Shown here: in pieces, positions 7,798 to 58,714 of the stretch | How positions within the stretch are numbered: the stretch's first letter is position 1 | Layout of the letters: the number at the start of each line of letters is the position of its first letter | Assembly (NCBI GenBank): GCA_010015675.1 | Contig: ML977006.1 | Location: 364,634 to 428,633 of the forward strand | Direction of reading: 5' to 3' | DNA length: 64,000 nucleotides | DNA from: Byssothecium circinans | Lineage: Eukaryota; Ascomycota; Dothideomycetes; Pleosporales; Massarinaceae | Translations under genes and position numbers: made by a program | The notes under the pieces: generated by a model | Told to the model about the DNA's origin: nothing | The model's input: only the letters and a program-made list of their open reading frames with translations | The model's database searches: none

Positions 7798-8661
7798 TCA
7801 ACTTTCCATGATCCTCTTGACAATGTCCCAGTACCGAGTCTCGTCCTTCCGTAGATGTGAAACATGTGCCGAACCCTCGTACTTCTCCAACGCAACGGAG
7901 AAACCGTCAGACTTAGCCTCAGCCGCATGTGTCTCGACATCTTTGTAGTCGGTCAATGCATCAGTGGGGCTGTAGATATACACCCGTCGCACTTCGGCGG
8001 TATTGGCCACGTTATGGTTGTGCGACTTGTACCAGTTGCCCAAGGAATTAGGTAACAGGCCCAGGGCCATCGAGGCAGTCCAGAAAGCGGCGAAAGCGTA
8101 AAGGAAAGGCACAGCGATCAGCTTCTGGAAAAATGGGAGACCGACACTAACGAAGGCCACGGCGCGAGGGATGCGGAAGAGGCCTGGACACGAATCAAAG
8201 ATTGTGACGTGTGGGGGAAGGCGCTTGTCATCGTTGGGGCCTGCCGTGGCAGCGAATTGCTCGTATAAGTTTGCGATGCTGGAGGAGCCGCCGTTGGAGA
8301 ATGCGTGAATGAGAAGAGGCGGTGAAGACGACAACACTGGTGCCTGGAACGCGGCACGAATGGCGGAAGCAGCGACTCTCATGAGAGGACCGATCTGTGA
8401 CGGGCGAAAGATGCAGCCCATAGTGCTCCTCAGAAGCAGTATCTGAGCAGCAGGATACATGGCCTGGTATTTGGCTATATATTTGGCGATGTGAACATCT
8501 TTGGCGTCGGTCCAACTGGAGATAACGATGAGTCGCGGTTGGTGGTCTGCACTTGTGCTTGAAGCCTCAGATGGCCGGTAGATGAAGACGAGGGGGCCAA
8601 GCTTCTCCATGAAGGAGAGAGGCTTGGTCGCAGTTGCTGGTGCTGGTGAAGTGGATGACAT
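7798..8661 (-). CDS. DUF829/TMEM53 family protein, PaxU-like hydrolase fold
   Basis: A 287-residue single-exon protein of the DUF829 (TMEM53, PaxU) family, alpha/beta-hydrolase-like proteins found in indole-diterpene and other fungal clusters; their reaction is not settled. I chose ATG 8661 because the open frame upstream has only a GTG and runs into a transposon. Visible family features are LIVISSWTDAKDVHIAKYI near the N-terminus, the nucleophile-elbow-like LLIHAFSNGGSSS, HVTIFDSCPG, and a C-terminal VRRVYIYSPTDALTDYKDVE followed by EGSAHVSHLRKDETRYW, which supplies the expected acidic residue and His. No stops are seen. A Fot-type transposon begins only about 70 bp upstream of the start codon, so the original promoter has probably been displaced. 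Confidence 0.85.
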   Translation of the reverse strand: MSSTSPAPATATKPLSFMEKLGPLVFIYRPSEASSTSADHQPRLIVISSWTDAKDVHIAKYIAKYQAMYPAAQILLLRSTMGCIFRPSQIGPLMRVAASAIRAAFQAPVLSSSPPLLIHAFSNGGSSSIANLYEQFAATAGPNDDKRLPPHVTIFDSCPGLFRIPRAVAFVSVGLPFFQKLIAVPFLYAFAAFWTASMALGLLPNSLGNWYKSHNHNVANTAEVRRVYIYSPTDALTDYKDVETHAAEAKSDGFSVALEKYEGSAHVSHLRKDETRYWDIVKRIMES

Positions 8662-8749
8662 GGTGCTGCGAAGATGGATAGGTGGTGGAGATGAAGTTGA
8701 CGCTTGGCTTGATGTGTTGATGGCGAACACTACCGTGTCCGTGCGCGTA

Positions 8750-10862
8750 ACGTGTCCGTGCGCGTGATGCACGGATTCGCGTGATGCACGCACATCACCA
8801 CAACAGCTCTACGAGAAATAAGGCTATAGAGCCACATATAGTAGCGAATATTGCGAGATTTTTTAGTGGAGTGCTCTATTGATGCTTGCGATCAACCTGC
8901 GCTACTGATATTTACTTGGAAGCTTAACGTTGCGGCCGCGCCGCGTAGTCTTGGGTGGAGCTGCTAATGCGGCACCTGAGACCTCCTTAGTAGCTAGAGC
9001 GTCAACCACACGTTTCTGACGCTTATTGCTCTGTATAGATGGCTGCGAGGCCTTTCTCTTACCCTTTTAGGCAGATTGTAGAGCTTTTGCTGCGTTACGA
9101 GCCTCCTTTTCGCGAGCGCGCTCTGCTGCCTTCTCAGCCCTCTCCGTCTCCCTGGCTACCTTGGCTGCCTCCCGCGCCACACGCTTCTCCTCTGCGATTT
9201 TTTCCTTGTACAGCTTAGCTGCCTTCCTTAACTTAGCTGTCTCAGCTTTTTAAAGTTTCTGCTCCTTATCCTCTTGCTCCTTCACAGACTAACGTACACG
9301 CGCCTCCCTAACCTTCCTTGGTAACTAGAAAACTGCACCTCTATAGTATTCTTAACGTTGCTAAAGGTTAAGAGGCTTGCTATTCTTCTTATACTTCTTC
9401 TTAACTAATAGTGCCTCCTTTAGCCTATTAATTTTATAGCAAAGTAGCTTATTTTAAATAGAGATGTAGTAGAGTGAGCAGCTAAGCTTCTACGCGTCCT
9501 TACTACCCTAGTCTTCTACTATAGACTATATAAGGTGATCTAGTTTACGCTAGTTAGATCTACTAAGTACTAACGTAGAGCTCTCTTATAATACCTACTT
9601 ATCTTAGGTAGTTTAGGTAAACCTTTTAAGTATAACCTCTAGGTTAAATAGTAATATACTAGTTACTTTAAAAGACTTAAATATCATCTCCTCCTTAAAG
9701 GAGCTCATCTATACCTTCTAGAAAAGGGGGAAGAAGTTACTTTTCTTAATTAGGACTAGGCCTTAGCTCTTTTAGAGGTGGGTTGTAAGCTTAGCTAAGT
9801 ACGCTAATAAGAGAGGCTTAAAGAGCACTACATTAAGTAGCTAGAGCGTATGCGTTAAATAAGGGGGAAGTATAGCTAGGAGGATCCTATTCCTATTATA
9901 GTAATTAATAAAATCTATAGTAACATAAGATCTATAGCTATTAAGGATAAGTAGCTAGTAAGATTATTAAGCTTTTACCTTTATATAGTGATTAAACACC
10001 TACTTAAGCTAGGTAAGGCTAATATTATTATTAGTCTAGCCTAAGGGTAAAGAGGAGATATGCATGCTATATTTTCCTACCTTAATATCCTTAACCTAGC
10101 TTAATTATATAGCCTTATTGGTAGCCTAATAGATAAGGCTTAGTAGTAACGCTAATCTATTAGCGTATATATATGCTAGGAGGGTAATCTATTCATAGCA
10201 GCTATCTTAGAGAGCTATTTTAACTTCCTTCTTCTCCTATATTCGCCTGCTGAATACCTGTTTTAATTAGCTAATAATACTAATTAGGAAGCCCTTTTTA
10301 TCTATATTATACGTGTGATAAGGCTTAATGTCATATTCCTTAATTTTATTACCTAGGAAGTTAAAATATAGGCTATATTTATTAGCTAAGTTAGCGTTAT
10401 AGTAATTACTATCCATACTAGCTACCTATTAAGAGATTAGATAGATGCTGTATTAGTTAATAAAGTAAGTAACCTAGCTCTTACTTACTAGCTCCTTAGC
10501 TATTATTAACGCGAAATTTTGTATTATCTCTCTTATAGGTAGTAAGTGACGCGCTATAAGCCCTTCTATATATTTAATAAGCTCTACCTCTTATTATAGA
10601 GTAAGCTTTTATTAGTTAGTAATCTTTAACATATGCAACTATATAACTACGTAGTGCTGCCGTGATAGAGTTAAGCACTTAATGCTATGCTTATTAGCTA
10701 TTTTCATATAATAGAGTTTATTACTAGGATCTAGCAAGTCTATCTCTATAAGCGCATCATTAATTAGAGCTATATTAGTAGAGTTATATAGTATAGAAGT
10801 TTAACATATTTTTAGGCTAAGTGTGCATTACGCGAATCTATATATTATACGCATGGACACGT
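8750..10862 (-). mobile_element. Fot1/Pogo-type DNA transposon A, nested in B
   Basis: A 2,113-bp element flanked by TA (8748-8749 and 10863-10864). The left terminal repeat begins ACGTGTCCGTGCGCGTGATG and contains an internal duplication of the GTGATGCACG unit; the right end carries the same sequence inverted, with several C-to-T and G-to-A changes. A is the same subfamily as C at 12951-15044. The first 600 bp (8750-9350) are almost unmutated and GC-rich, while the rest is AT-rich and full of stops. Confidence 0.88.
8902..10803 (-). pseudogene. Transposase of element A, RIP-degraded
   Basis: Pogo/Fot-type DDE transposase on the minus strand. The C-terminal end is the best-preserved part: a Lys/Arg-rich tail ending in VKLPSKYQ and a TAG at 8904-8902, a tail shared with the other Fot-like copies here. 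Upstream is a long Ala/Glu/Lys-rich coiled-coil-like segment (AKEARN, EEKRVARE). The DDE core and the N-terminal helix-turn-helix are recognisable only by comparison with copy C and the element at 50-54 kb. Dozens of stop codons stand where Gln is expected. Non-functional. The start is approximate. Confidence 0.7.
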
Positions 10863-10999
10863 TAATGATTAGAGTCGCATAATAATTACTAAACACTATA
10901 ATAGCTCTATTAGTAATAAGGTAATAGAGCTACTAATAATAAATTTTATTACATAATCTTCTAGAGTAGTACTATGTTAATCCTTATAATTAATTTGCT

Positions 11000-12880
11000 C
11001 TATTTATATCTACTAGGAAGCTTAACGTTGTGGCCGCGGCGCGTAGAGATAGCTAGGGTACTAGATATGCCCTCTAAGGCCTCCCTAATATCTAGAGCAT
11101 TAATACTACGCTTCTAACGCTTTCTATTCTATAGAGATGGCTGTAAGGCCTTTCTCTTACCCTTTTAGGATAGTTATAGAGCCTTTTTAGCGTTACGGAT
11201 AGACTTCTAGGTAGCGCGCTAAGCTGCCTTTTTAGCTCTCTCCTTCTCCTTTACCTCTTTAGCTGCCTCTCGCGCTGCATGCTTTTCTTGCTAAATTTTC
11301 TCCTTGTAGAGCTTAGCTACCTTCTTTAGCTCTGCTCTCTCTACTTTTTAAAGCTGCTGCTCCTTCTCCTCTTACTCTCTAATAGATTAATGAACGCGTG
11401 CCTCCCTTATCTTCCTTAGTGACCAGAAGACTACTCTACCATAATATTCCTAGCGCTGTTAGAGATCTAGAGCTTTACCCTTCTTCTTACGCTTCTCCTT
11501 AATAGATAGCGCCTGCTTGATCCCATCTATCTCATGCTTAAGTAGCTTATTTTAGATAGATAGGTGGTGGAGCGAGTGGCGAAGCTTCTTTGTATCCTAG
11601 CTACCCTAATCCTTTACTACTGATTAAACAAGCCTATCTATCTTTCTCTAGTCATGATTACTAAGCCCTAATGAAGAGCTATTACCTAATTCTTTATTAT
11701 GGGTGAACCTATCAAGGATAGGATTAGGATCTAGTAGTGATATGCCTATGGCTCTAAAAGAGCTAAGGATAGTTGATTCCTTAAATGAGGCCTCCTATGC
11801 TTTCTAGAATAGAGGGAAGAAATCTCCCTTCTTAATAGAAACTAGGCCTTAGCTTGCATAGAGATATCTTGATAGCTTAGCTAAGTAGGTAGTTGATAGA
11901 GGTTTGAACATCCCTATATTAAGTAGCTAAAGCGTATGCGTTAAATAAGAAGGGAGGATGACTAGGAGGATCCTATTCTAATTATAGTAGTTAATAAAAT
12001 CTATAGTAATATAGGATCTATAGCTATCTAGGACTAGGAGTTAATACACTTATTAGGTCTTCTCCTTTATATAGTAATCAAACACCTATTCAAGCTAGGC
12101 AAGCCTGATATCATTATTTGTCTAACTAGAGGCTAATAAGGTAATAAAGACTTAATAATCTCTTACCCTAATTTCCTCTACCTAGCTTAATTAGATGCCC
12201 TTGTTCACAGTATTATAGATAAGGCTTAGTAGTAGAGCTAATCCATTAGTGCAGATACATGCTAGGAGCGTAATCTAGGCGTAGTTACTATCCTAGAGTA
12301 ATGCTCTAACCTCCTTCTTCTCCTACATTCATCTACTAAATATCCTTTTTAATCTGCTAGTGATACTAATTAGGAAGCCTTTCTCATCTATATTGTAGGT
12401 ATAACGAGGATCTATATGATATTGATTAATCTTGCTATATAGGAGGCTAAAATAGAGGTAATATTTATCCTCTAAATTAGCTTTATAGTGATTACTGTCC
12501 ATGCCAGCCATCTATTAGGAGATAAGCTAAATGCTATATTAGTTAATAAAGCAGGTAACCTAGCTCTCGCTAACTAGCTCCTTTACTATTATAGAGGCGA
12601 AATTCTATACTATCTCTCTAGTAGGAGGTATATATCTTTCTATAAGTTTTTTAATATATTGTATAAGCTCCTGCTCTTGCTAGGCGTTAAGCTTTTATTA
12701 ATTAATTCTCTTAGTTATTCATGATGATTAGACCTTCCTATAATTCCGTAAGAGGGTATTGTAATCAATACTATACCTACGCGCTATTTTAGCGTACGTA
12801 AAGGGTTCTCCTAGATTAAGCGATTTAATCTCATTAATCATAGCCTGAATTAGGTCCATATTGATAGAATTATAACGTAT
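11000..12880 (-). pseudogene. Transposase of element B, RIP-degraded
   Basis: Pogo/Fot-type DDE transposase, divergent from the A/C subfamily but in the same order: N-terminal DNA-binding region near 12.8 kb, catalytic region near 12.5-11.7 kb, coiled-coil tail ending near 11000. The clearest block, 12511-12329, reads MAGMDSNHYKANLEDKYYLY... then YNIDEKGFLISI, matching the Asp-containing MDEKGF motif of this family. Stops are frequent, mostly TAG/TAA. Non-functional; limits approximate. Confidence 0.65.
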
Positions 12881-12950
12881 AGAAGGTTAAGGTAGTTTAG
12901 TGTTTAGTAATTATTACGCGACTCTAATTATTACGCGCACGGACACGGTA

Positions 12951-15044
12951 ACATGTCTATGCGCGTGATGCATAGATTTGCGTAATGCACGCATATTACT
13001 ATAATAGCTCTATAAGAAATAAGGCTATAGAGCTACATATAGTAGTAAATATTATAAGATTTTTTAGTAGAGTACTCTATTAATGCTTGCGATTAACCTA
13101 CGCTACTAATATTTACTTAGAAGCTTAACATTGCAGCCACGCTACGTAGTCTTAGGTAGAGCTACTAATATAGCACCTAAGACCTCCTTAGTAGCTAGAG
13201 TATTAACTATACGTTTCTAATGCTTATTACTTTGTATAGATAGCTGTAAGGCCTTTCTCTTACCCTTTTAGGTAGATTATAGAGCTTTTGCTATATTATA
13301 AGCCTCCTTTTTATAAGTGTACTCTACTACTTTCTTAGCCCTCTCTATCTTCCTAGCTACCTTAGCTACCTCCCACGCTACACGCTTCTCCTCTATAATT
13401 TTTTCCTTATATAGCTTAGCTACCTTCCTTAACTTAGCTATCTTAGCTTTTTAAAGTTTTTACTCCTTGTCCTTTTACTCCTTTATAGACTAACGTACAC
13501 GCGCCTCCCTAACCTTCCTTAGTAACTAGAAAACTATACCTCTATAGTATTCTTAACATTACTAAAAGTTAAGAGGCTTACTATTCTTCTTATACTTCTT
13601 CTTAACTAATAGTGCCTCCTTTAGCCTATTAATTTTATAGTAAAGTAGCTTATTTTAAATAGAGATATAGTAGAGTAAGTAGCTAAGCTTCTACACGTCC
13701 TTACTACCCTAGTCTTCTACTATAGACTATATAAGGTGATCTAGTTTACGCTAGTTAGATCTACTAAGTACTAACGTAGAGCTCTCATAATACCTACTTA
13801 TCTTAGGTAGTTTAGGTAAACCTTTTAAGTATAACCTCTAGATTAAATAGTAATATACTAGTTACTTTAAAAGACTTAAATATTATCTCCTCCTTAAAGG
13901 AGCTTGTCTACGCCTTTTAGAAAAGGGGGAAGAAGTTACCTTTCTTAATTAGGACTAGGCCTTAGCTCTTTTAGAGGTAGGTTATGAGCTTAGCTAAGTA
14001 TACTAATAAGAGAGGCTTAAAGAGCACTATATTAAGTAGCTAAAGCGTATACGTTAAATAAGGGGGAAGTATAGCTAGGAGGATCCTATTCCTATTATAG
14101 TAATTAATAAAATCTATAGTAACATAAGATCTATAGCTATTAAGGATAAGTAGCTAGTAAGATTATTAAGCTTTTACCTTTATATAGTAATTAAACACCT
14201 ACTTAAGCTAGGTAAGGCTAATATTATTGTTAGTCTAGCCTAAAGGTGAAGAGGAGATATATACGCTATGTTTTCCTACCTTAATATCCTTAACCTAGCT
14301 TAATTATATAGCCTTATTAGTAGCCTAATAGATAAGGCTTAGCAGTAACGCTAATCTATTAGCGCATACAAATGCTAGGAGGGTAATCTATTCGCGGCAG
14401 CTATCTTAGAGAGCTGTTTTAACTTCCTTCTTCTCCTACATTCACCTACTAAATACCCGTTTTGATTAGCTAATAATACTAATTAGGAAGCCCTTTTCAT
14501 CCATATTGTACGTGTGATGAGGCTTAATGTCGTATTCCTTAATTTTGTCACCTAGGAAGTTAAAATATAGGCTATATTTATTAGCTAAGTTAGCGTTATA
14601 GTAATTACTATCCATACCAGCTACCTATCAAGAGATTAGATGGATGCTGTGTTAGTTGATGAAGTGAGTAACCTAGCTCTCACTTACTAGCTCCTTAGCT
14701 ATTATTGACGCGAAATTTCGTATCATCTCTCTCGTAGGTGGCAAGTGACGCGCTGTGAGCCCTTCTATGTATTTAACAAGCTCTGCCTCTTGTTATGGAG
14801 TGAGCTTTTGTTAGTTAGTGATCTTTGACACATGCGACTATGTAACTGCGCAGTGCCGCCGCGATAGAGTTGAGCGCTCAACGCCATGCTTGTTAGCTAT
14901 TTTCGTATAACAGAGTTCATCGCTAGGATCTAGCGAGTCTATCTCTGCAAGCGCATCGTCAATTGGAGCCGTATTGGTGGAGTTGTGTGGTGTGGAAGTT
15001 TGACATGTTTTCGGGCCGAGCGTGCATCACGCGCACGGACACGT
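12951..15044 (-). mobile_element. Fot1/Pogo-type DNA transposon C, same subfamily as A
   Basis: A 2,094-bp element that shares the TA at 12949-12950 with the right end of B and has TA at 15045-15046 on its right. Left end ACATGTCTATGCGCGTGATG is the mutated form of A's terminal repeat; the right end is clean (CATCACGCGCACGGACACGT) but lacks about 17 bp of the internally duplicated motif present in A. In contrast to A, C is mutated on its left and nearly clean over its last 400-450 bp. Insertion at the TA bordering B explains the tandem arrangement. Confidence 0.85.
13103..14999 (-). pseudogene. Transposase of element C, RIP-degraded
   Basis: The N-terminal part is the best-preserved copy of this family in the cluster: DDALAEIDSLDPSD, then TKIANKHGVERSTLSRRH, a Psq/CENP-B-type helix-turn-helix, then a second DNA-binding block PPTREMIRNFASIIAKEL, and further on YNMDEKGFLISI, the first catalytic-Asp motif. 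Nonsense codons (TAG/TAA) interrupt it at positions where related copies have Gln, and the catalytic half is badly mutated. No obvious ATG remains at the 5' end, so the start given is approximate. Confidence 0.7.
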
Positions 15045-15046
15045 TA

Positions 15047-16164
15047 AAGCTGGTAAAAAATAATAATTAATGGAGGGGTGCTGATATTAATCCCGCACGC
15101 GCCAATGTGGCGTAGTTTTCAGTCAGAGAGGTACAATTCGGCAGGTGCTCTGTCTAGAACAGAAAAGCGATGCTACTTTCGATGCGATCCCGGTAGCTGT
15201 GCCACCTCGGCGATCCGGGGGCCAGAGCAGGCGTTGTGCCGACTCCCGGTCGAAGCGCAGGCATACTGGTGACCTTACGGGGATCGTGCCTTCTCAAAAC
15301 ACACAGTTAATGAGTCGTTCCTCCCTCAAGCTTAATTCCTCCACGTGTACCTCTCATAAACAAGCAATAAATGAGCTGTAGATGGGTTTGAATTAAGAAA
15401 TAGCTGTTAATAAATTGTTCTGAGAACGTCAGATCCCTCTAAGGGACAGCCTGTGTCACGTTCAGTGAAAGATTGAGATCTAGTCGAGGAGGTGTCTTTT
15501 ATCAAAGAAGGAGCAATCATCGCCACTAGTACTGAGTACAGTAGGGTATCAACACAAGGAAAAAACACGATAAGGATAAGGCGCACCGGCCTCAGAACTC
15601 GAACGACTTAGGATGAACGATTACGTAAGCGGAGCGGATTAACCTGCATCCGACAGAGGTGTCTTTTATATTCGTCGTGCCCGGACGCTCACGTCTGTTG
15701 CTTGACCAAAGACCTCGGCATGATACCTGCTCGTCGCGACAGCCTCAGAGTCATCCTCTATCACAGGCCGCTCACCCTCTACATGATGCAGATACCGGGG
15801 GAAGCTCGAGCCCAGCTTTAAAGCTCGCAACCCTATCCCCGAGGCCCAATGGTACCACATGAAGCTAGCCCCTAACGCTTAGGCACTACTACCTATAAAT
15901 ATAACACTGTAAGCCTAATTACTTAATTCACTAGCTGTATTACTACGCTAAACCTATCGTATAACACTCCAGTCCTGTTTGAAAAACCTCACACTACCCC
16001 CTGAAAACGGGGCGGTGCAGATGATTTCGCAGGTCACCAATACCAAGTTGTGCTCGCTGAGATTCGTAGCCTCTCTTCCAAAACGGTCCTCAAGCCGAGG
16101 AAAGAACCCCGAATCATATCAAAGACGGCAGTAGATATGTACCCCGCGGCTTCGAGGTGCGACT
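15047..16164. other. Intergenic, no gene recognised
   Basis: After the transposon cluster the sequence returns to normal base composition. Short frames at 15078-15381 and 15659-15862 lack start context or recognisable motifs. No RNA gene was seen. Confidence 0.4.
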
Positions 16165-50550: not shown

Positions 50551-52684
50551 CCGTGCTGAATCAGCCAACGCACGTTCTCACCCCGCGCACGGTTTTGACG
50601 ATGCCTGCCACCCACTTTATGAAGCTCTACAGCGCGATATAGGTGCTACAGATGCCGAATTTTTTGTAGGAGTGAATAAGAGAGCTTGAAAATTCGATTG
50701 GGAGCGATAAATTACGTGCGATAGCGTTGTGGGGGGAGAACTTTGCGGGTGCGCGTTTCCTTCGGCACTAAGGACCCCACATCTTTAATATCCATCTTAA
50801 CTACCTCTACAGCCTTAGGGGCAGTAGTAGGTGCTGGGAGTAGTGAAGGAGCCTTTGCGCGACGCCTAGCACCCTTTTTAGAGGTCTGTAGATCCTGGCG
50901 GAGTTGTTTTTCGATCTGTTTCGCGATACGCGCCTCCTCGCGCTCAATAGCCTTACTCTGCTGCTGTTGAAGGCGGATTTCTTTGGCCGCCAGCCGTAGT
51001 CGCGCGCGCTCCTCCTGTAGATCCTTCTTCTCCTGCTTCTTCTGCTCCTTAAGGCGTTGCTGCTCCGACTTTTGAAGCTGTAGAGCCTCCTCGTTGGCGT
51101 CCTTTTGTGCCTGCCTCTCACGGGCGTCCTGAACCTTCGTAGGCGACCAAAATACGGCGCCACCATGCCAATCCTCTGGCGCTTCAAGTAGTAGGGGTTT
51201 ACCGCGTTGACGGCGCTTCTTCTTATTAAGTAGAGCCTCACGTAAACGCTCGTTTTCGTGCTGTAGTATCTGCTTTTGGGCGGAGATCGCGTGGATAGTG
51301 TGAGAGAGTTAACGCGTGCGGCGGTCATGGAGATCCTCCACTACCTGCCGTAGTAAGCGCTCGATTTTTCTCCAATCTGAAGCTGAGAGTACTGACGAGC
51401 TACTCTCACTTGAGGAGGGCCTTTCTTCTACGCGTTTATTGAATCTTTGAAGGATAACGTCAGGATCGAAAGGCGACAGTCCTATAGCTTCAAAAGCGCT
51501 TAGAATCGTCGCTTCTTTGAAGGCTGTGTGCCACGCGCGATAGAAGAGGCGGAAAAAGTCTCTTTTAGTGATTGATGAGATGCCCTGGCAGTTGTATATA
51601 AAGGCACTTAGCTCAGAGGAGTACGCCGCGGAGAGAGGCTTGAAAAGACCCACGTCAAGTGGTTGAAGCGTATGGGTAGCGTGTGGGGGGTAGATAGCAA
51701 GGAGTATTCAATTCTCGTCGCAGTATTTAATGAAATCCATCATCACGTGTGAGCCGTGCCCATCTAGGATTAAAAGGCGATACGACCGACGCGCCTTTGC
51801 CTTCGTCTCCCTATCAAATACGAGCTTTAACCACGCCAGGCCTAGCTCATTATTGGTCCATCCACTTAGTGATGAGGTGAAGAAGGTGCGGTGGATCATA
51901 GGATCAAAATCCTGTAGCCATGAATCCTGTAGGTTTCTGGAAACGGCTTAATAAATAAGGGCAGGTGTAAGAGCAGATCCGTCGGCGCAAATACATGCGA
52001 TAGTCGTTATCCACTCCCTATTACTATCCTGTATCATTTGCTTGATCTCCCCACTATCATATCGCTAGCGGGAGAAGACTCTCTTCATCCTACTGAGCAC
52101 CCCAATGAGGAAGCCTTTTTCATCCATATTGTAGATATTTCGCGGCTCGACGTCGTACTGGGTAATCTTATCACGTAGGAGCTAAAAATACAGCTTATAT
52201 TTAAAGGCGGAGTCAGCTCTGTGGCGCTGGGTATCAATGCCAGTCGTCCACTTATTTACAAGCTTGATGTTGTGCCGTGTGAGAAAGCGATCTACCTAGC
52301 ATTTTCCAGGCTCTTTTCCACCAATCTGGTGCGCGAAATTTCGTATCATAACTTTCGTCGGTGGTAGGCCTCGTACGCAGAGCTCATCAATATATTTTAT
52401 AAGCTGTTGTTCTTGGGTTTGGTTGAGGAGTCGCATTTTGGAGTCGGCATCTGCACGGGTGCCTTGAACGCCGCGCGCGCGTTTTGACAGAGTTGTGCGA
52501 TCAACGTTGTATTTTTTCGCAATCTGAGTGTAATTAGGTTTTTCTCCGAGCTTCAGCGATTCAATTGCTGCAATCGCCTCATCCATATCGTGTGTGGTGG
52601 TGGAGTTATGGATTTCTGAAGTTTGTGGTGGATTTCAGAAAAGAGAGCGCGAAAAAAGAACGTGCAAAACCCGAGGAGGAACAA
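50551..52684 (-). mobile_element. Second Fot1/Pogo-type element nested in the first
   Basis: A 2,134-bp insert bordered by TA (50549-50550 and 52685-52686). Taking it out rejoins the host transposase seamlessly in frame (…GWVD, one stop, YIKRH…). Its ends match weakly: the left CCGTGCTGAATC and inverted right TTGTTCCTCCTC differ, but both are followed by GCACGTTCT and a CGCGC motif at equal spacing. It carries its own transposase in the opposite orientation. Confidence 0.8.
50712..52586 (-). pseudogene. Transposase of the nested Fot1/Pogo-type element
   Basis: From ATG 52586: MDEAIAAIESLKLGEKPNYT and VDRTTLSKRARGVQG (Psq-type HTH), PPTKVMIRNFAHQIGGKEPG, then VDRFLTRHNIKLVNKW, YNMDEKGFLIGVLSRMKRVF (catalytic Asp block), LLILDGHGSHVMMDFIKYCDEN, YPPHATHTLQPLDVGLFKPL, and a coiled-coil tail to 50712. 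Around five in-frame stops remain (for example after GKC, LYF, FSR and RRTR), so it is dead but young: most of the frame is clean. It is a distinct subfamily from the host element. Confidence 0.8.
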
Positions 52685-54409
52685 TATATTAAGCGACACT
52701 AGGTCGATCTTATCTCACGCTGGGCGACTAGGATCGATCGCTCGCGCCACTAAGCTGACTCTTAGTCAAAGTATAGCCTCTACTTCGAGCTTCTACGCAG
52801 CAAGCTCAGCCAATACGATATAGAGCCTCGCAATACGTACAATATGGATGAGAAGGGCTTTATGCTAGGAGTGCTTACTCACTTAAAACGGGTGTTCAGT
52901 AGGAGGCTATATAAGGAGGGGAAGATTAAGGCTTACATCCAGGATGGCTCACGAGAGTGGATAACGCTGCTGGCCTGTATATGCGCTGATGGATCTCGCC
53001 TTGAGCTAAGCCTCATATATCAATTAGCCTCAGGCTCGCTCTAGGACTCGTGGCTGCAGGCCTTTAATCCTGATGATCATCGAGCTCGCTTTGCCTCCTC
53101 ACCCTTAGGCTAGACGAACAATGAGATAGGCCTAGCCTAGCTAAAGCAGGTGTTTGATCCCTCCACTAAGGCTAAGGCAGGCCGATCTTATCAATTACTT
53201 ATTCTTGATAGCCATGGATCTCACCTTACGATGGATTTTATTAAGTACTGCGATAAAAACAAGATCCTCCTTGCAATCTATCCTCCTCACTTAACCCACA
53301 CGCTCTAGCCGCTCGACGTCGTCATGTTTAAGCCTCTCTCATCAGCCTACTCAGGCTACGTAGCAGCCTTCATGGAGAGGTGCTAAGGGCTTACTTTGAT
53401 AAGTAAGAGAGACTTCTATCCCATGTTTATGGCTGCCTGGGAGGCCTCATTCAAGGAGAAGACTATACTTAAGGCTTTTGAGGCAACTGGCCTCTCACCT
53501 CTTGAACTAGAGGTGATACTCAAGAGATTCAATAGCTAGCCTATACAGGGCAGCTCGAGCGATAGCGACTCCTCAGCCTTAAGCGCCTCTGATTGGAGGA
53601 AGATTAGGCAGCTGGTTGATCGCGCTGTAGCTAATAGAGACTAGAGAAAGATCTTAAAGCTTAACTAGACGATCCACCAACTCTCGATTAGATTAGTACT
53701 AGCTGAGCATGAGAATGTGAGACTTAAGGAGGCTCTCATCAACGAGAGGCAGCGTAGAAAGCGAGGCAGAGCCCTGCCTCTAGAGGCAGAGGGGGAGTAT
53801 TACGGTGGAGCTGTATTCTGGTCCCCAAGGAAGGTGAAAGAGGCACGTGATCGCTAGCACTAACAAGGGCTTGAAGAGGAGCAACTACAACAGCAGAAAG
53901 CTAAGGCAGCTCGCCTACGTGAGGAGCAGAGGCAGGAGAAACTCCAGGCAGTTAAGGCAAGGCGTGCAGCAAGGGCAGCAGCTCAATTAATGAGGCAGGA
54001 GGAGAAGGCTCGTAAGGCAGCTAATCAAGCCTCACGATAGGTAGCTCGTAGGACTTAACAACGACTCCAGCAAGCTTAAAAAACTGCCCAAAGAGGCAAG
54101 AGGAGACGCCTTAAGGCACCTACTAATTCAGGTCTAAAAAAGAGTATAGCTACGCAGCGTAAGGGTAGTAGTAAGGCCTTAGGTGCTGCAGCAGGCCCAC
54201 CACCATCTTAATCACGACACGGCCGAGCAATTAAGCTCCCAGCAAAATATAGATAGCTATATATATTAATTAAGGCCTATAGAGCTCAACACTAAAAATT
54301 ATCGCGATAATAGCTATTGTACGTGGCTCAACAACCTCAAGTTGATTGCTAGTGTTGGTGTTCAAGGTGGCTCACTACGCCGGGCGGCTCGTTACGCCGG
54401 GCGCCAGGG

Positions 54410-54645
54410 TACTGTGGAAGCGAATAAGATTACGTCTTGATTGATCGTCATTGACTCTAGCAAGAACGAAGAGCATTCTCCGAGGTGTAGTTGCGCCCGA
54501 CTTCTCCAAGACAAAGTCCAGTTCTACCGGCTGCACGTCCCTTTTCCAACAGGCGCTCCCTAGGTAGCATTCAGGCCACCTAGCTCTTGTATCACACGTC
54601 ATCAACGTAAGCAAGGGCAAAGCTTAGTCATTGGATACCTAGTTA
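54410..54645. other. Short spacer between transposon and MITE
   Basis: Unique-looking sequence that contains the original 3' flank of the peptide-precursor gene (minus strand), up to the TA at 54644-54645. Confidence 0.5.
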
Positions 54646-55069
54646 ACGTGTTTTATCAGCAAGCTGGCCACCTTAGCAAGCTGGCCACCCGAAAACCCAC
54701 CAAAAATCGCAAAAACGGCCCCCTGCAATTTCAACAACGAGACAGTAATATCGTATAAAAATTAATAACTAACCTTTTCTATCTGCTCTAGTACTCTAGT
54801 TAACATTATATAATAATAGGCCTAGCCGTTATCAAGATATGAAGGTTTGGGGGCCAATTTAATACCAAATTGCAATATCTCTAGAACTATTCAGTATATT
54901 CTTCTATAAGTCCATTGAATACCCTAAAGCAGAGAGTAAATGATTATTATAAAATTCTAGAAGATACTAATAAGGCGTGGTTGAAATTGTAGGGGGCCGT
55001 GTTTGCGATTTTTGGTGGGTTTTCGGGTGGCCAGCTTGCTGAGGTGGCCAGCTTGCTGATAAAACACGT
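54646..55069. mobile_element. 424-bp MITE with about 90-bp terminal inverted repeats
   Basis: Non-coding element flanked by TA (54644-54645, 55070-55071). Its ends are almost perfect inverted copies for about 90 bp: ACGTGTTTTATCAGCAAGCT on the left and the same inverted on the right, each with a duplicated AGCAAGCTGGCCACC unit and a shared CCCACCAAAAATCGCAAA block. The core is AT-rich with no frame. TA duplication and end structure fit a Tc1/mariner-derived MITE. It sits in the last codons of the precursor gene at 55542-54957. Confidence 0.92.
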
Positions 55070-55542
55070 TATCGGCCCCGCGCTTACGTATAGCCTCAGC
55101 CTCGCGCTCCTTAAGTCCGCTAACGTACGTAAGGACGAACGCCTGGTCAACGCTCATAACCTCATCTTCGGCCACTTCGCGCTTGAGCATGGCTTCAACC
55201 TCACGCTTCTCCTTCAATCCACCAATTTATGCGAGAGCAAAGGCCTGATCAACACTCGCCTCGTCATGAGCCTCTTCACGCTTCTTCAATCCGCCAATAT
55301 ACGCGATAGTGTTGCCGAATGTAGTGTTAACGGATGCCCCCTTGGAGCGCTTCTTCAATCCACCAATTTAGGCAATGACATTTCCAAAAGCAGCATCGAC
55401 AGAGACCTCGTCCTGTTGGATATTAGTAATCTTTCGATGTGAAATGATGAAGGGCGTGATGAGAACTCACGTTACTAGGGACTAGTGCGCTAATGGCTTG
55501 CGCAGCAAACAGAGCTAGCAGGATGGTGTTGGCGTACTTCAT
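54957..55542 (-). pseudogene. Kexin-processed repeat-peptide (RiPP, dikaritin-like) precursor, broken
   Basis: Exon 1 (55542-55471) encodes a 24-residue signal peptide, MKYANTILLALFAAQAISAL plus a short tail. The 58-bp intron runs 55470-55413 (GTGAGT...AACAG). Exon 2 encodes four imperfect repeats at about residues 25-46, 47-69, 70-94 and 95-127. Each has an SVD/SVN-x-x-F segment, then a short hydrophobic core (AYIGG in repeat 2, TYVSG in repeat 4) and a dibasic end: LKKR, LKKR, LKEKR, LKER. This is the layout of precursors of ustiloxin-like peptides, cut by Kex2 in the secretory pathway and cross-linked by UstYa-type oxidases. Lesions: TAA at 55370-55368 and TAA at 55229-55227, both at the first position of the core, and the MITE at 55069, which replaces the original end and adds about 37 unrelated residues. 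Divergent from two UstYa-like genes. Confidence 0.72.
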
Positions 55543-55660
55543 GACGGCGACTGGGTCGAGGGATTTAAAGGTACGAACTGACGTGGCGCCCGAGTGGTTG
55601 AGGAGGAAGAAGTGACGAGGACCGGTAATCAGGTGAGCAATATAAGGTCGAGGACTTCTC

Positions 55661-55667
55661 CTTTATA
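55661..55667 (-). promoter_or_regulatory. TATA-box-like element of the precursor gene
   Basis: On the minus strand TATAAAG lies 119 bp upstream of the precursor ATG (55542), matching the spacing seen for the genes at 26175 and 46998. Confidence 0.4.
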
Positions 55668-56544
55668 CTCGCACGTCTAGAGCAGTTTCAAGTGCTGTTG
55701 TGGTACTTGAGGCACTAACAGCATATCCCGTAACATGCTGAACGCCGGGTCGTTGGGTTGCTAGCCCTGAATAGAAGGACCTTCAGGAGTCGAACCCAAA
55801 TCTCGTATTCACTGATAAAGAGTGTAGGTGGGACTTAAGTCCGATCCGAGCTCAAAGCCGGCGAGTGAAGGCCTGATTCTCTCTTAGGGGAAAGTAGTCC
55901 TTGGACAGACAGCTTCCAACATCTTGGTAGCCTTTAGGATGCAAGATAACTCGTAGAACGAAGGGTTCAGTTTAACGCCGCCAACAACTCAATACATGAA
56001 ATTTAAGGCGTGACGCTGGAGGGTCAACCTGAGAATCATCCACGTATCAACGAGCTGATGGGTCCCTCAAGACGTTGTATAGCGGCGAAGGTGCGCCTAT
56101 CAAGAGGCATGAGAGCCGCCACAACTGATCGATGTCAGATTAAATTGGCCATGCTTTAGTATACATGCAGGGTAAAAATAAAGGTGCCGAAATTATGCAC
56201 TGATTACGGCGGGAGGAAGGTGGAGGTGCTCTGGGTTACCTGAGCCTTGTTACATATCCATGTTTCGTGTGAAGACTGCCAGCAGATGCCTTTTCTGACC
56301 GCCGAACGTTTGTGCTCAATTGCGTACCTTATCTGCGGCTCCCACAGAATTGGCCTTCTGGACATTTTCAAGTACTGGCAAGCCGCTTCATCTAGGTCAC
56401 CTTGTCATTGGGATTTGTATCTCCTCACCTACCTAAACAATTATCTCACTATCGGATCATATCGTCCGTTGATTACGGTTGCGCCTCTTAGACCTTTTCA
56501 CTATCATTGCGATTTCTCAATTCTTATCTCTGCGTTACGTTGTA
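55668..56544. other. Divergent promoter region of the peptide locus
   Basis: About 0.9 kb between the precursor (minus) and the first UstYa-like gene (plus). No frame with recognisable content. A bidirectional promoter is plausible. Confidence 0.45.
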
Positions 56545-57526
56545 ATGGCCTTCCAGTTCGCCAAAGACTATTTGCCCGTCAACCAACGAGGAAGTGTCGA
56601 AGGCGGTGGAGATGCAGAGAAGAGTGGAGAGCCCTTTCTCAGGTTTCATCTCGAAGGCTTCTTACCCCCGCATCGCTCACGAGCAGCCTTCCTGCTTGTA
56701 TGGATGCGATGGATTCCTTGGGTACTGGTCGCGTGCCTTTTCATCTCTAACTGGTTCACCTAGGCCGCCGTTCAATCATTTACACCAGATAGTGAGGTCT
56801 TCAGTAAGTTTCTAGAAGCTGCATCTAGCATAAGATCACTCACAAGGAAACAAAGCTCCCGCGGAGTGAGCAATCAAGTTCAAAAGCTTGGTCTCTACCG
56901 CCGGCATCGAAGGGGATGTGAGCCTATATCAAGGACGGCCTACAAATGAGAGCGATAAGCTTTGGGAGGAACTGCACAAATGTAAGGATTGAACGCTCAT
57001 TTTCGAAGCCAAAGTTGACATCCTACTTCAGATGGTGTCACACGAATTCCTATGAGCGAAGCAGCCCAGCTCGCAAACAGAACAACACCCATACCCGGCG
57101 AACCAGGCCAGTATGTCGTGATTCTAGAGGTCTTCCAGCAGCTGCACTGCTTGGTACAATTTCTCCCTCGTCATGACTGCAGACATCTCACTGACCCAAC
57201 TGCAGAGCAACCTACGTAAACGCATATTCTAGAACGACACAACCACCTCACCTGACGACATCCCTGAGTTATCAATGAAACACACGGACCACTGCATTGA
57301 CTCCATCCGGCAAAGTCTCATGTGTTCAAGCGAAATTACGCCATTGCCGTACGCCTGGTGGCCTAAATACGAGAGGGTCCTTCCGACGGCTGGCGTCACA
57401 CACACCTGTCGCGACTTCGAAGCGATCCGGGATTGGGAAAAGTAGCACAAGGCCGACAAAATGGATCCGACGATCCGTGTTGATGATCCTCTTGGTGTCA
57501 ACGTGGAATGGAATGGAGTGTCATGA
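56545..57526 (+). pseudogene. UstYa/DUF3328-family oxidase gene, broken
   Basis: UstYa-type proteins are membrane-anchored oxidases that cross-link or cyclise fungal RiPP core peptides. Exons 56545-56803, 56856-56981, 57032-57153 and 57206-57526 splice with 50-52 bp introns. Order: cytosolic N-terminus; one membrane helix (LVWMRWIPWVLVACLFISNW); YQGRPTNESDKLWEEL, the family YxGxPxxExDxLW motif; VFQQLHCLSNLRKRI, where relatives have H-Q-L-H-C; HTDHCIDSIRQSLMC, the second HxxHC motif; ITPLPYAWWPKYERVLP; THTCRDFEAIRDW. In-frame stops are at 56761 (TAG), 56867 (TGA), 57230 (TAG) and 57443 (TAG). The first His of the first HxxHC motif is Gln, so catalysis may have been lost or altered even before the stops. 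Confidence 0.85.
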
Positions 57527-57952
57527 TAGTAGACTGATTACTTAGTGTTGGTTTTCTTGACTCTCATCAATATCATTAGACATGGCGATCTGCCGGTCAA
57601 AGTATACAGTGTCACTGTAACTCAGCCCGCGCCTAAGCGCCCGATTGTCTTGCACATTGCCTACTGTTAGAGGAACTAGTGTATGCGGGTGACTTTGCTT
57701 ACAGGGAGGAGGTTCCTTCTTGTGTTGCTTCAATCTCTTGGCGGAGAGCGTAACTTCGCATGCTTATCGCCTCGTGTATACCGACACTCCTTTACACATT
57801 GCGACACTTCGCTGAATCTTGACCTTCCTATCAGGGAACGGTATCTGCACACTTCGAAACCAACACTGCATATTCGGTTGCTGAACCTGACGCCAACCAC
57901 CCATCTCTTTATCCTTTGACAATTTTCAATTTCTCGACTATGTCGGCCCAAA

Positions 57953-58714
57953 AATGAACCAAGAGGGAGACACTTCACGAACCACGCTTTGAGACGAAGA
58001 GAAGTTCAAAGACTATTCCGACGGCGACTCTGAAGGCAGTCACACTTTCTCACTGATCTTCTATCCCGCGCGATCACGCTTCTTTCGACCTTTCATCGTA
58101 ATCTTTCTCATCGTAGTGATTTTAACGCCCCTCGTCTACCTCGCTACAACTCACAAGAAGGGCATTAAGTATGATCAATGCGGAACCACCGCTGACGAAG
58201 CGCGAGCACGGGGCTGTGTTTTCGAGACCACCGGATTCACTTGGTTGCCGAAAGAATGTTACGACCCAGTGACAGAAGAAGAGTTCCTCGATTATATCGT
58301 CAAGAGCGACCTGAATCTGTACCGCGATGTGACTACACTGAGAAAGCTTCGATCGAAGAAGTTTGCCGCGGACATGGCCCTGGCTGTAAGTACCTCTGAT
58401 TGCGAAAGTACCATGGTATTTGTTCTCGATGCTGACTATGGTTACTAGTTTTCGTACGGCAACAATATCATCTCATGCACTGCTTATTTCTAATCAAGAA
58501 GCTCCACCGGGCTCTCGCGAGCGGAAAGACTGTCGACGGGCAGATCAAGACAACACATCATACCGAACACTGTATTGGCCAACTTTTGCAATCGCACGGT
58601 TTTCGCGAGCACGACGTTCAGCTTTCGTATGCCAAGTTCCCATACTGTGGAAAGTCGGGAGGGTATAATGTGGCATGGGGGAAAGGCGCGACGGTTGGGT
58701 GGACTGATAATTGA
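57953..58714 (+). pseudogene. Second UstYa-like (HxxHC) membrane protein gene, probably broken
   Basis: Single-pass protein with a cytosolic N-terminus, a membrane helix (RPFIVIFLIVVILTPLVYLA) and an ectodomain with CGTTADEARARGC, TTGFTWLPKECYDP and, in the second exon, HLMHCLFLIKKLHRAL and HHTEHCIGQLL: two HxxHC copper-site-like motifs as in UstYa/DUF3328 proteins, though the rest is a different subfamily. The frame from ATG 57953 has a TGA at codon 13 (57989-57991). The canonical donor GTAAGT at 58386 would shift the frame; using GTACCT at 58390 with acceptor at 58448 keeps it. So there is either a minor splice site or a second lesion. Same strand as, and 0.4 kb behind, the first UstYa-like gene. 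Confidence 0.72.

What the first reader, a model, noticed from the sequence alone, without database searches (positions are those of the whole stretch)
54957..58714. Decayed kexin-processed RiPP (dikaritin-like) locus: repeat precursor plus two UstYa-like genes
Seen: a signal peptide, four repeats each ending in a basic K/R site, and a short YIGG/YVSG-type core, divergent from two genes with paired HxxHC motifs. Known: ustiloxin, phomopsin, asperipin and victorin precursors are Kex2-cut repeat proteins matured by UstYa/DUF3328 oxidases encoded nearby. Inferred: this was a cyclic-peptide locus with a core unlike the ones I know, now broken in all three genes. It may represent an undescribed peptide family with functional copies in relatives.
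Basis: partly seen in the sequence, partly recalled or inferred. Interest (0 to 1): 0.92.

Follow-up and report, generated by a model that had tools for sequence, protein, structure and literature searches.

The report
Broken fungal cyclic-peptide gene cluster
A wrecked copy of a fungal gene set that probably made small secreted, ring-closed peptides lies in this window; the same genome carries an intact-looking relative and further sets with other peptide sequences, each with a companion gene that the standard domain library does not recognise.

Summary
Window 55071-55542 (minus) encodes a signal peptide, an intron and four K/R-bounded repeats (YIGG/YVSG core), divergent from gene A (UstYa, PF11807) and gene B (UstYa-like, below Pfam's cut-off). 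The genome appears to be Byssothecium circinans. A precursor relative (51% identity, three open YIGGLK repeats) and relatives of A and B are listed with one contig length (26,888), so very probably linked elsewhere. The window's own genome holds an open trio in the same order on C9, with core NYNGLK. Searching with B-type proteins gave six genes at four loci; all four carry a secreted repeat precursor, two of them (C37, DDGWKISKR; C15, GFVTE(P)EKR) recognised only after gene B pointed there. C15 has no PF11807 match nearby. The locus is a new, decayed member of the known dikaritin/KEP class. The newer point is the B-type family, a Pfam-invisible companion of such precursors. No product, expression or chemistry was tested.

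The parts
55471..55542 (-). precursor exon 1: signal peptide
   Evidence: best 11-residue hydropathy 2.45, in the range 2.15-2.49 of the other four precursors; no dedicated signal-peptide predictor was run
55413..55470 (-). precursor intron, 58 nt, GT..AG; the open C9 precursor has a 60-nt intron at the same place
55347..55412 (-). repeat 1, ends KKR; in-frame TAA at 55368-55370
55278..55346 (-). repeat 2 (SVNTTFGNTIAYIGGLKKR), open
55203..55277 (-). repeat 3, ends KEKR; in-frame TAA at 55227-55229
55080..55202 (-). repeat 4 (SVDQAFVLTYVSGLK...RKR), open
54646..55069 (.). MITE-like inverted-repeat element, TA at 54644-54645 and 55070-55071, inserted at the 3' end of the precursor
56545..57529 (+). 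gene A, UstYa-type oxidase (PF11807), pseudogene: TAG at 56761-56763 and 57443-57445; first motif QQLHC, second HTDHC
57954..58714 (+). gene B, UstYa-like membrane protein below the PF11807 cut-off, pseudogene: TGA at 57990-57992, frame change near 58,320-58,345; motifs YHLMHC and HTEHC kept
52299..53305 (.). relics of a Tc5/pogo-type transposase on the precursor side: HTH_Tnp_Tc5 (21.5 bits, just under its cut-off, minus) and DDE_1 (32.6 bits, plus)

Best explanation
A decayed dikaritin-type RiPP cluster (Kex2-processed repeat precursor plus membrane-anchored UstYa-type oxidases) in Byssothecium circinans, a broken relative of an open trio on contig C9. Shown by sequence: secreted precursor with K/R-bounded repeats; divergent gene A (UstYa, PF11807) and gene B (UstYa-like; its C9 relative is modelled with a transmembrane helix and has paired HxxHC motifs); the same three genes in the same order and open at C9; lesions in all three genes here. 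Probable: linkage of relatives of all three in another genome (equal contig lengths). Inferred from the known class: the precursor enters the ER, Kex2 cuts after KR in the Golgi, A and B oxidise the released repeat, most likely cross-linking the conserved core aromatic residue (Tyr in Y-x-G-L-K) to a neighbour, and the core is then trimmed and exported. Inferred history: a transposon hit and point lesions silenced this copy after it had diverged from C9.
For: Repeats, signal peptide, intron. Precursor relative P0001, E 6.7e-17, 51% identity, three open AYIGGLK repeats. P0001, P0006 (gene A relative, 80% over 56 aa) and P0038 (gene B relative, 62% over 110 aa) are each listed from source lgn, one contig, length 26,888; A and B relatives also share longest-contig lengths 16,638, 5,369 and 8,106, so 4 of 20 gene-A hits have a partner among the 47 gene-B hits. 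Open trio at C9:662,096-665,722. UstYa domain in gene A. The definition of dikaritins as Kex2-processed repeat precursors cyclised by UstYa homologues is in PMC10512285 (passages).
Against: No product, transcript or chemistry. Linkage in the other genome rests on equal contig lengths, not on DNA that I read. Trees of A and B are weakly supported and do not settle which copy is orthologous to which. Gene B is below the UstYa cut-off. No tyrosinase match at the locus, unlike ustiloxin and phomopsin clusters. By repeat score alone the window copy does not stand out: 4 of 9 background stretches score as high or higher.
Confidence: 0.86

Rival explanations
1. The repeats are an unmodified secreted Kex2 peptide (pheromone or surface-peptide type), and the UstYa-like neighbours are incidental.
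For: 6,120 of 7,878 Kex2-processed repeat proteins surveyed have no DUF3328 gene nearby (PMC7329392, abstract and passages). No product is known here.
Against: In that survey alpha-mating-factor and fungal-pheromone precursors, with three exceptions, have no DUF3328 neighbours (abstract).
Confidence: 0.08
2. The lesions are assembly or sequencing errors and the window locus is a working gene set.
For: The database carries gene A as a (partial) protein, CC80DRAFT_570938.
Against: Stops of three kinds, a frame change and a 424-bp insertion spread over three adjacent genes, while the C9 exons in the same assembly are open. The database model is marked partial and starts beyond the first stop of gene A.
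Confidence: 0.04
3. The precursor similarity is chance in a K/E/A-rich stretch.
For: The strict repeat screen missed the window copy; its looser score (119) is reached by 4 of 9 background stretches (119, 145, 148, 166).
Against: E 6.7e-17 against 5.8 billion proteins to an open repeat protein; 50% identity over 115 residues to the C9 precursor, E 2.6e-11; the same intron position.
Confidence: 0.01

Closest known systems
Dikaritins in general (ustiloxin, phomopsin, asperipin-2a, epichloecyclin, victorin), as defined in PMC10512285 (passages)
   Same: Signal peptide, Kex2-type sites between repeats, aromatic residue in the core, UstYa homologue next door.
   Different: The core letters were not found in a full-text search; only a three-gene set is recognised; the second oxidase-like gene is outside PF11807.
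Asperipin-2a cluster (four genes, PMC10512285; one DUF3328 gene, PMC7329392; passages)
   Same: Compact cluster; no tyrosinase at the window locus. That asperipin lacks one is recalled.
   Different: Different core; two oxidase-like genes. The asperipin reductase and transporter are recalled; no counterparts were sought by family here.
Kex2-processed repeat proteins (KEPs), Umemura 2020, PMC7329392 (outline, passages and part 1 of 4 of the Results)
   Same: Signal peptide plus Kex2-separated repeats; 22% lie near DUF3328 genes.
   Different: Broken copy. Its supplementary tables were not available, so whether this repeat is one of the 838 types is unknown.
Venturia inaequalis dikaritin clusters (PMC9632046, passages)
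   Same: Repeat precursors beside DUF3328 genes, several per genome.
   Different: Sequences not compared (supplement not available).

Membership tests
Dikaritin RiPP cluster | Precursor with N-terminal signal peptide | tested here: met
   Read directly and by hydropathy only; no signal-peptide predictor available
Dikaritin RiPP cluster | Near-identical repeats separated by Kex2 (KR) sites | tested here: met
   Four in the window, four in C9, three in P0001; cleavage itself not tested
Dikaritin RiPP cluster | UstYa/DUF3328 gene close by | tested here: met
   Gene A, PF11807 over cut-off, starts about 1 kb from the precursor start
Dikaritin RiPP cluster | Core peptide cyclised or otherwise oxidised | not testable with these tools
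   No metabolite data; window copy is broken
UstYa family (PF11807), gene A | Profile score over the curated cut-off | tested here: met
   72.4 bits against 25
UstYa family (PF11807), gene A | Two HxxHC motifs | tested here: inconclusive
   Second motif HTDHC present; the first reads QQLHC in the window and HQLHC in C9
UstYa family (PF11807), gene B | Profile score over the curated cut-off | tested here: not met
   18.4 bits for the window exon, 13.6 for P0033; 19 of 30 relatives reach E <= 0.1, best 3.2e-4, weaker than the E 3.3e-5 that scored 24.3 bits. No Pfam domain listed for any of the 47 hits. Not filed as a PF11807 member
UstYa family (PF11807), gene B | Two HxxHC motifs and a membrane anchor | tested here: met
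   YHLMHC/HTEHC in the window; helix 42-65 in the P0033 model, mean pLDDT 80.8; profile comparison aligns both motif pairs, E 2.3e-4 but probability only 44%
Ustiloxin/phomopsin-type cluster | Tyrosinase in the cluster | tested here: not met
   None of 30 tyrosinase matches lies on C30, C37 or C15; the one on C9 is about 90 kb away

The most novel reading that the evidence does not exclude
Gene B represents a separate, Pfam-invisible oxidase family (CG-x-[ST] ... A ... C ... W ... C, then usually two HxxHC motifs) that is a dedicated partner of secreted repeat precursors. It serves very different cores (YIGGLK, NYNGLK, DDGWKIS, GFVTE) and at C15 does so without any PF11807 gene, so that DUF3328-based mining misses such clusters and B-type genes would be a better guide to unknown fungal cyclic peptides.
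Probability: 0.45. Interest if true: 0.72.

Novelty: new member of a known kind. Interest (0 to 1): 0.52.

Why it matters
Only five dikaritins were reported as of December 2022 although hundreds of precursor types are predicted (PMC10512285, passages). This locus shows what a dead cluster looks like beside an open relative in one genome. It also pointed, through gene B, to further precursors with Trp and Phe cores. If B-type genes mark repeat-peptide clusters that lack a DUF3328 gene, a slice of fungal peptide chemistry has been overlooked and can now be searched for directly.

Tried and rejected
Considered and dropped. (a) Repeat-induced point mutation as the cause of decay: composite indices of the three genes are negative (-0.39, -0.52, -0.26). 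(b) Relationship to a solved fold: nothing convincing for B by sequence (best E 0.2) or structure (33 matches, 0 at E <= 0.001), nor for A by sequence (best E 0.2); the gene A model is poor (pLDDT 57.3) and was not searched. (c) RNA families and tRNAs in the window: none. (d) Resolving orthology by trees: no well-supported clade holds the window rows. (e) Strict repeat screen over 16 sequences: it found only C9 (and its other reading frame), missed the window copy and the C15 precursor start in L021, and gave 0 detections in shuffled sequence. (f) Literature for the core letters: one irrelevant paper.

Results against the gene-B generalisation: a marginal B-type match at C46:150,398 (E 0.0085, with a stop) has no repeat precursor in the 3.2 kb held and was left out of the 4 of 4. 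One C15 B-type protein has degenerate motifs (HLWQC and PHQC). The six UstYa loci used for contrast were the six best-scoring outside B-type loci, not a random draw: 1 of 6 (C9:1.18 Mb) has a secreted repeat precursor with RR sites, and a second (C3) has repeats without any dibasic site. Four of 4 against 1 of 6 gives Fisher p = 0.024; counting C3 as well, 0.071. B-type loci were judged by reading the hits, not by a fixed score: the C15 left part (111) and the window copy (119) score no higher than some background.
Full report
Identity and place. The window is C30:364,634-428,633 of a 48.4-Mb genome in 109 contigs. The last exon of gene A is 100% identical to a protein named from Byssothecium circinans, and contig C9 has exactly the length (1,417,624) listed for another B. 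circinans protein, P0033. I take the organism to be Byssothecium circinans. C30 itself is held at 557,549 bases while the contig of the gene A protein is listed at 562,572; I do not know why.

The observation. The shared pattern is SV-[DN]-x-x-F ... Y-[IV]-[GS]-G-L-K followed by a basic site. In-frame TAA codons lie in repeats 1 and 3 (55368-55370, 55227-55229). The exon then runs into a 424-bp inverted-repeat element (54646-55069) with TA on both sides. Five other full-length or long partial copies in the genome are 96-98% identical, so the insertion is probably recent.

Gene A (56545-57529, plus) has the UstYa domain: 72.4 bits on its last exon alone, cut-off 25; 85.9 bits over 56807-57448. 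It has stops at 56761-56763 and 57443-57445, and its first motif reads QQLHC where the C9 copy reads HQLHC. Gene B (57954-58714, plus) keeps YHLMHC and HTEHC, but has a stop at 57990-57992, and its homology passes to another frame near 58,320-58,345. It scores only 18.4 bits with PF11807. None of the three genes shows a RIP signature.

Relatives elsewhere. Searched with exon 2 (X at the stops), 5.8 billion proteins gave one hit at E <= 1 among 18 candidates: P0001, 88 residues, E 6.7e-17, with three open repeats SVDASFVLAYIGGLK followed by KR or RR. It is listed from source lgn on one contig of 26,888 bases. The gene A search (20 hits) and the gene B search (47 hits) each returned one protein from source lgn on one contig of 26,888 bases: P0006 and P0038. 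By identity P0006 is the closest of the 20 gene A sequences compared (80% over 56 residues; the C9 copy is 73%); by score it ranks fifth. Three more lengths (16,638, 5,369, 8,106) appear in both the A and B lists. Exact coincidence of contig length in several short lists is very unlikely, so I infer linked, open relatives of the trio in other genomes; I could not read that DNA.

Open copy in the same genome. P0001 against the own genome hit C30 and C9:665,378-665,701, the latter open. C9 carries the precursor (665,240-665,722, plus; signal peptide, a 60-nt intron at the same position, four repeats SVDAAFIGINYNGLK-type), gene A (minus; exon pieces open, splice sites not proven) and gene B (662,096-662,853, minus, matching P0033 of 232 residues), in the same divergent order. 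Neighbours there include an HD-domain gene and an arabinofuranosidase on one side and the splicing factor SF3b1 on the other. The core differs (NYNG and NYFG against YIGG and YVSG) and the precursors are 50% identical, so the two loci are diverged relatives, not a recent duplicate. A DNA search with window 55063-57000 found only itself.

Gene B as a guide. Searches with one 255-residue relative and with two B-type proteins of this genome found six B-type genes at four loci: C9, C30, C37 (two genes) and C15 (two genes). C37 was in hand as a UstYa locus and weak B-type hit, C15 as weak B-type hits only. Fetching the C37 flank showed, beside a PF11807 gene, a precursor with a signal peptide and nine DDGWKISKR-type repeats. 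At C15 the precursor start lay in a locus already held and had been missed by the screens; reading the frames showed a signal peptide and GFVTEPEKR/GFVTEEKR repeats, partly unread in the held genome, with an LCM-type methyltransferase (59.9 bits) and a sub-threshold MFS piece nearby. One search lists only one PF11807 match on C15, about 700 kb away. So 4 of 4 B-type loci have a secreted repeat precursor within about 3 kb of a B-type gene. For contrast, of six strong UstYa loci without B-type genes, scanned over 9.3-9.6 kb each, 1 of 6 has one (C9:1.18 Mb), and one more (C3) has repeats without dibasic sites. A marginal seventh B-type match (C46, E 0.0085) has none in 3.2 kb and was not counted. 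Both HxxHC motifs are present in 5 of the 6 B-type proteins.

What gene B is. In an alignment of 30 of the 47 hits the lumenal part has invariant CGT, EAR.R.C, W and C, then nearly invariant YHxxHC and HTxHC, which P0045 lacks. Where organisms are named they are ascomycetes such as Kalmusia, Paraphaeosphaeria, Karstenula and Bimuria (their order, Pleosporales, is recalled). Of these, some touch UstYa at E <= 0.1, best 3.2e-4; none of the 47 hits carries a listed Pfam domain. Profile comparison with gene A relatives aligns the two motif pairs at E 2.3e-4 but with a probability of only 44%. The model of P0033 is fair (pLDDT 80.8), with a helix at 42-65 fit to span a membrane and no PDB match at E <= 0.001. 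I therefore say that it works like UstYa, not that it is a member.

Mechanism. Shown: architecture, homology, linkage within this genome, lesions. Inferred from the class (PMC9233826 and PMC10512285, passages): ER entry, Kex2 cutting, oxidation by the UstYa-type proteins, trimming. Each of the four precursors has an aromatic residue in its repeat core (Y, Y, W, F), consistent with a cross-link at that residue. None of the 30 tyrosinase matches lies near any of the four loci. The window copy itself should make nothing.

Known or new. A Kex2 repeat precursor next to a UstYa gene fits the published definition of dikaritin clusters, and new cores are common: 838 types plus 2,560 stand-alone precursors in a survey of 1,461 strains. 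DUF3328 proteins also occur in non-RiPP clusters (PMC12048977, section 22). The search listings showed me no report of this repeat or of the B-type family, but only searched core letters, supplementary tables were not available and subscription papers are missing. Papers seen: PMC7329392 (outline, passages, part 1 of 4 of Results), PMC12048977 (outline, sections 16 and 22), and passages of PMC9632046, PMC9233826, PMC10512285 and PMC6941272; the rest as listings. I rate the locus a new member of a known kind and keep the B-type family as the bolder reading.

Noticed in passing
L031:1449-1963 (C37:257,849-258,363): Open secreted precursor with nine (Q)DDGWKISKR-type repeats, with a PF11807 gene beside it and B-type genes on both sides.
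   Followed up: partly
L021/L034 (C15, about 366 kb): Secreted precursor with GFVTEPEKR repeats near two B-type genes and a leucine-carboxyl-methyltransferase-type gene; the only PF11807 match on C15 is about 700 kb away.
   Followed up: partly
L054 (C9, about 1.182 Mb): Secreted repeat protein with eight VPDADTSYERFQDDV units near a UstYa match that has stops; the RR sites are followed by P, which Kex2 is expected to cut poorly (recalled).
   Followed up: no
L059 (C3, about 310 kb): Seven 21-residue repeats DDADDLINNVWSESNPSNAPR near UstYa matches, with no dibasic site: perhaps a precursor cut by another protease.
   Followed up: no
window 54646-55069: MITE-like element; its 45-bp ends also bound stretches of about 1.8 kb on C8 and C11, possible full-length relatives.
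   Followed up: partly
window 8001-16000: AT-rich block with RIP-like dinucleotide signature, composite index 0.50 to 1.39 in 2-kb steps.
   Followed up: no
window 56807-57448 / P0002: The public protein CC80DRAFT_570938 (partial) is a spliced model of this broken gene. Its contig is listed at 562,572 bases while C30 is held at 557,549; reason unknown.
   Followed up: no
own genome G000: 56 PF11807 matches (exon by exon, a lower bound), several with in-frame stops, some of which may be introns read through: a large UstYa repertoire.
   Followed up: partly
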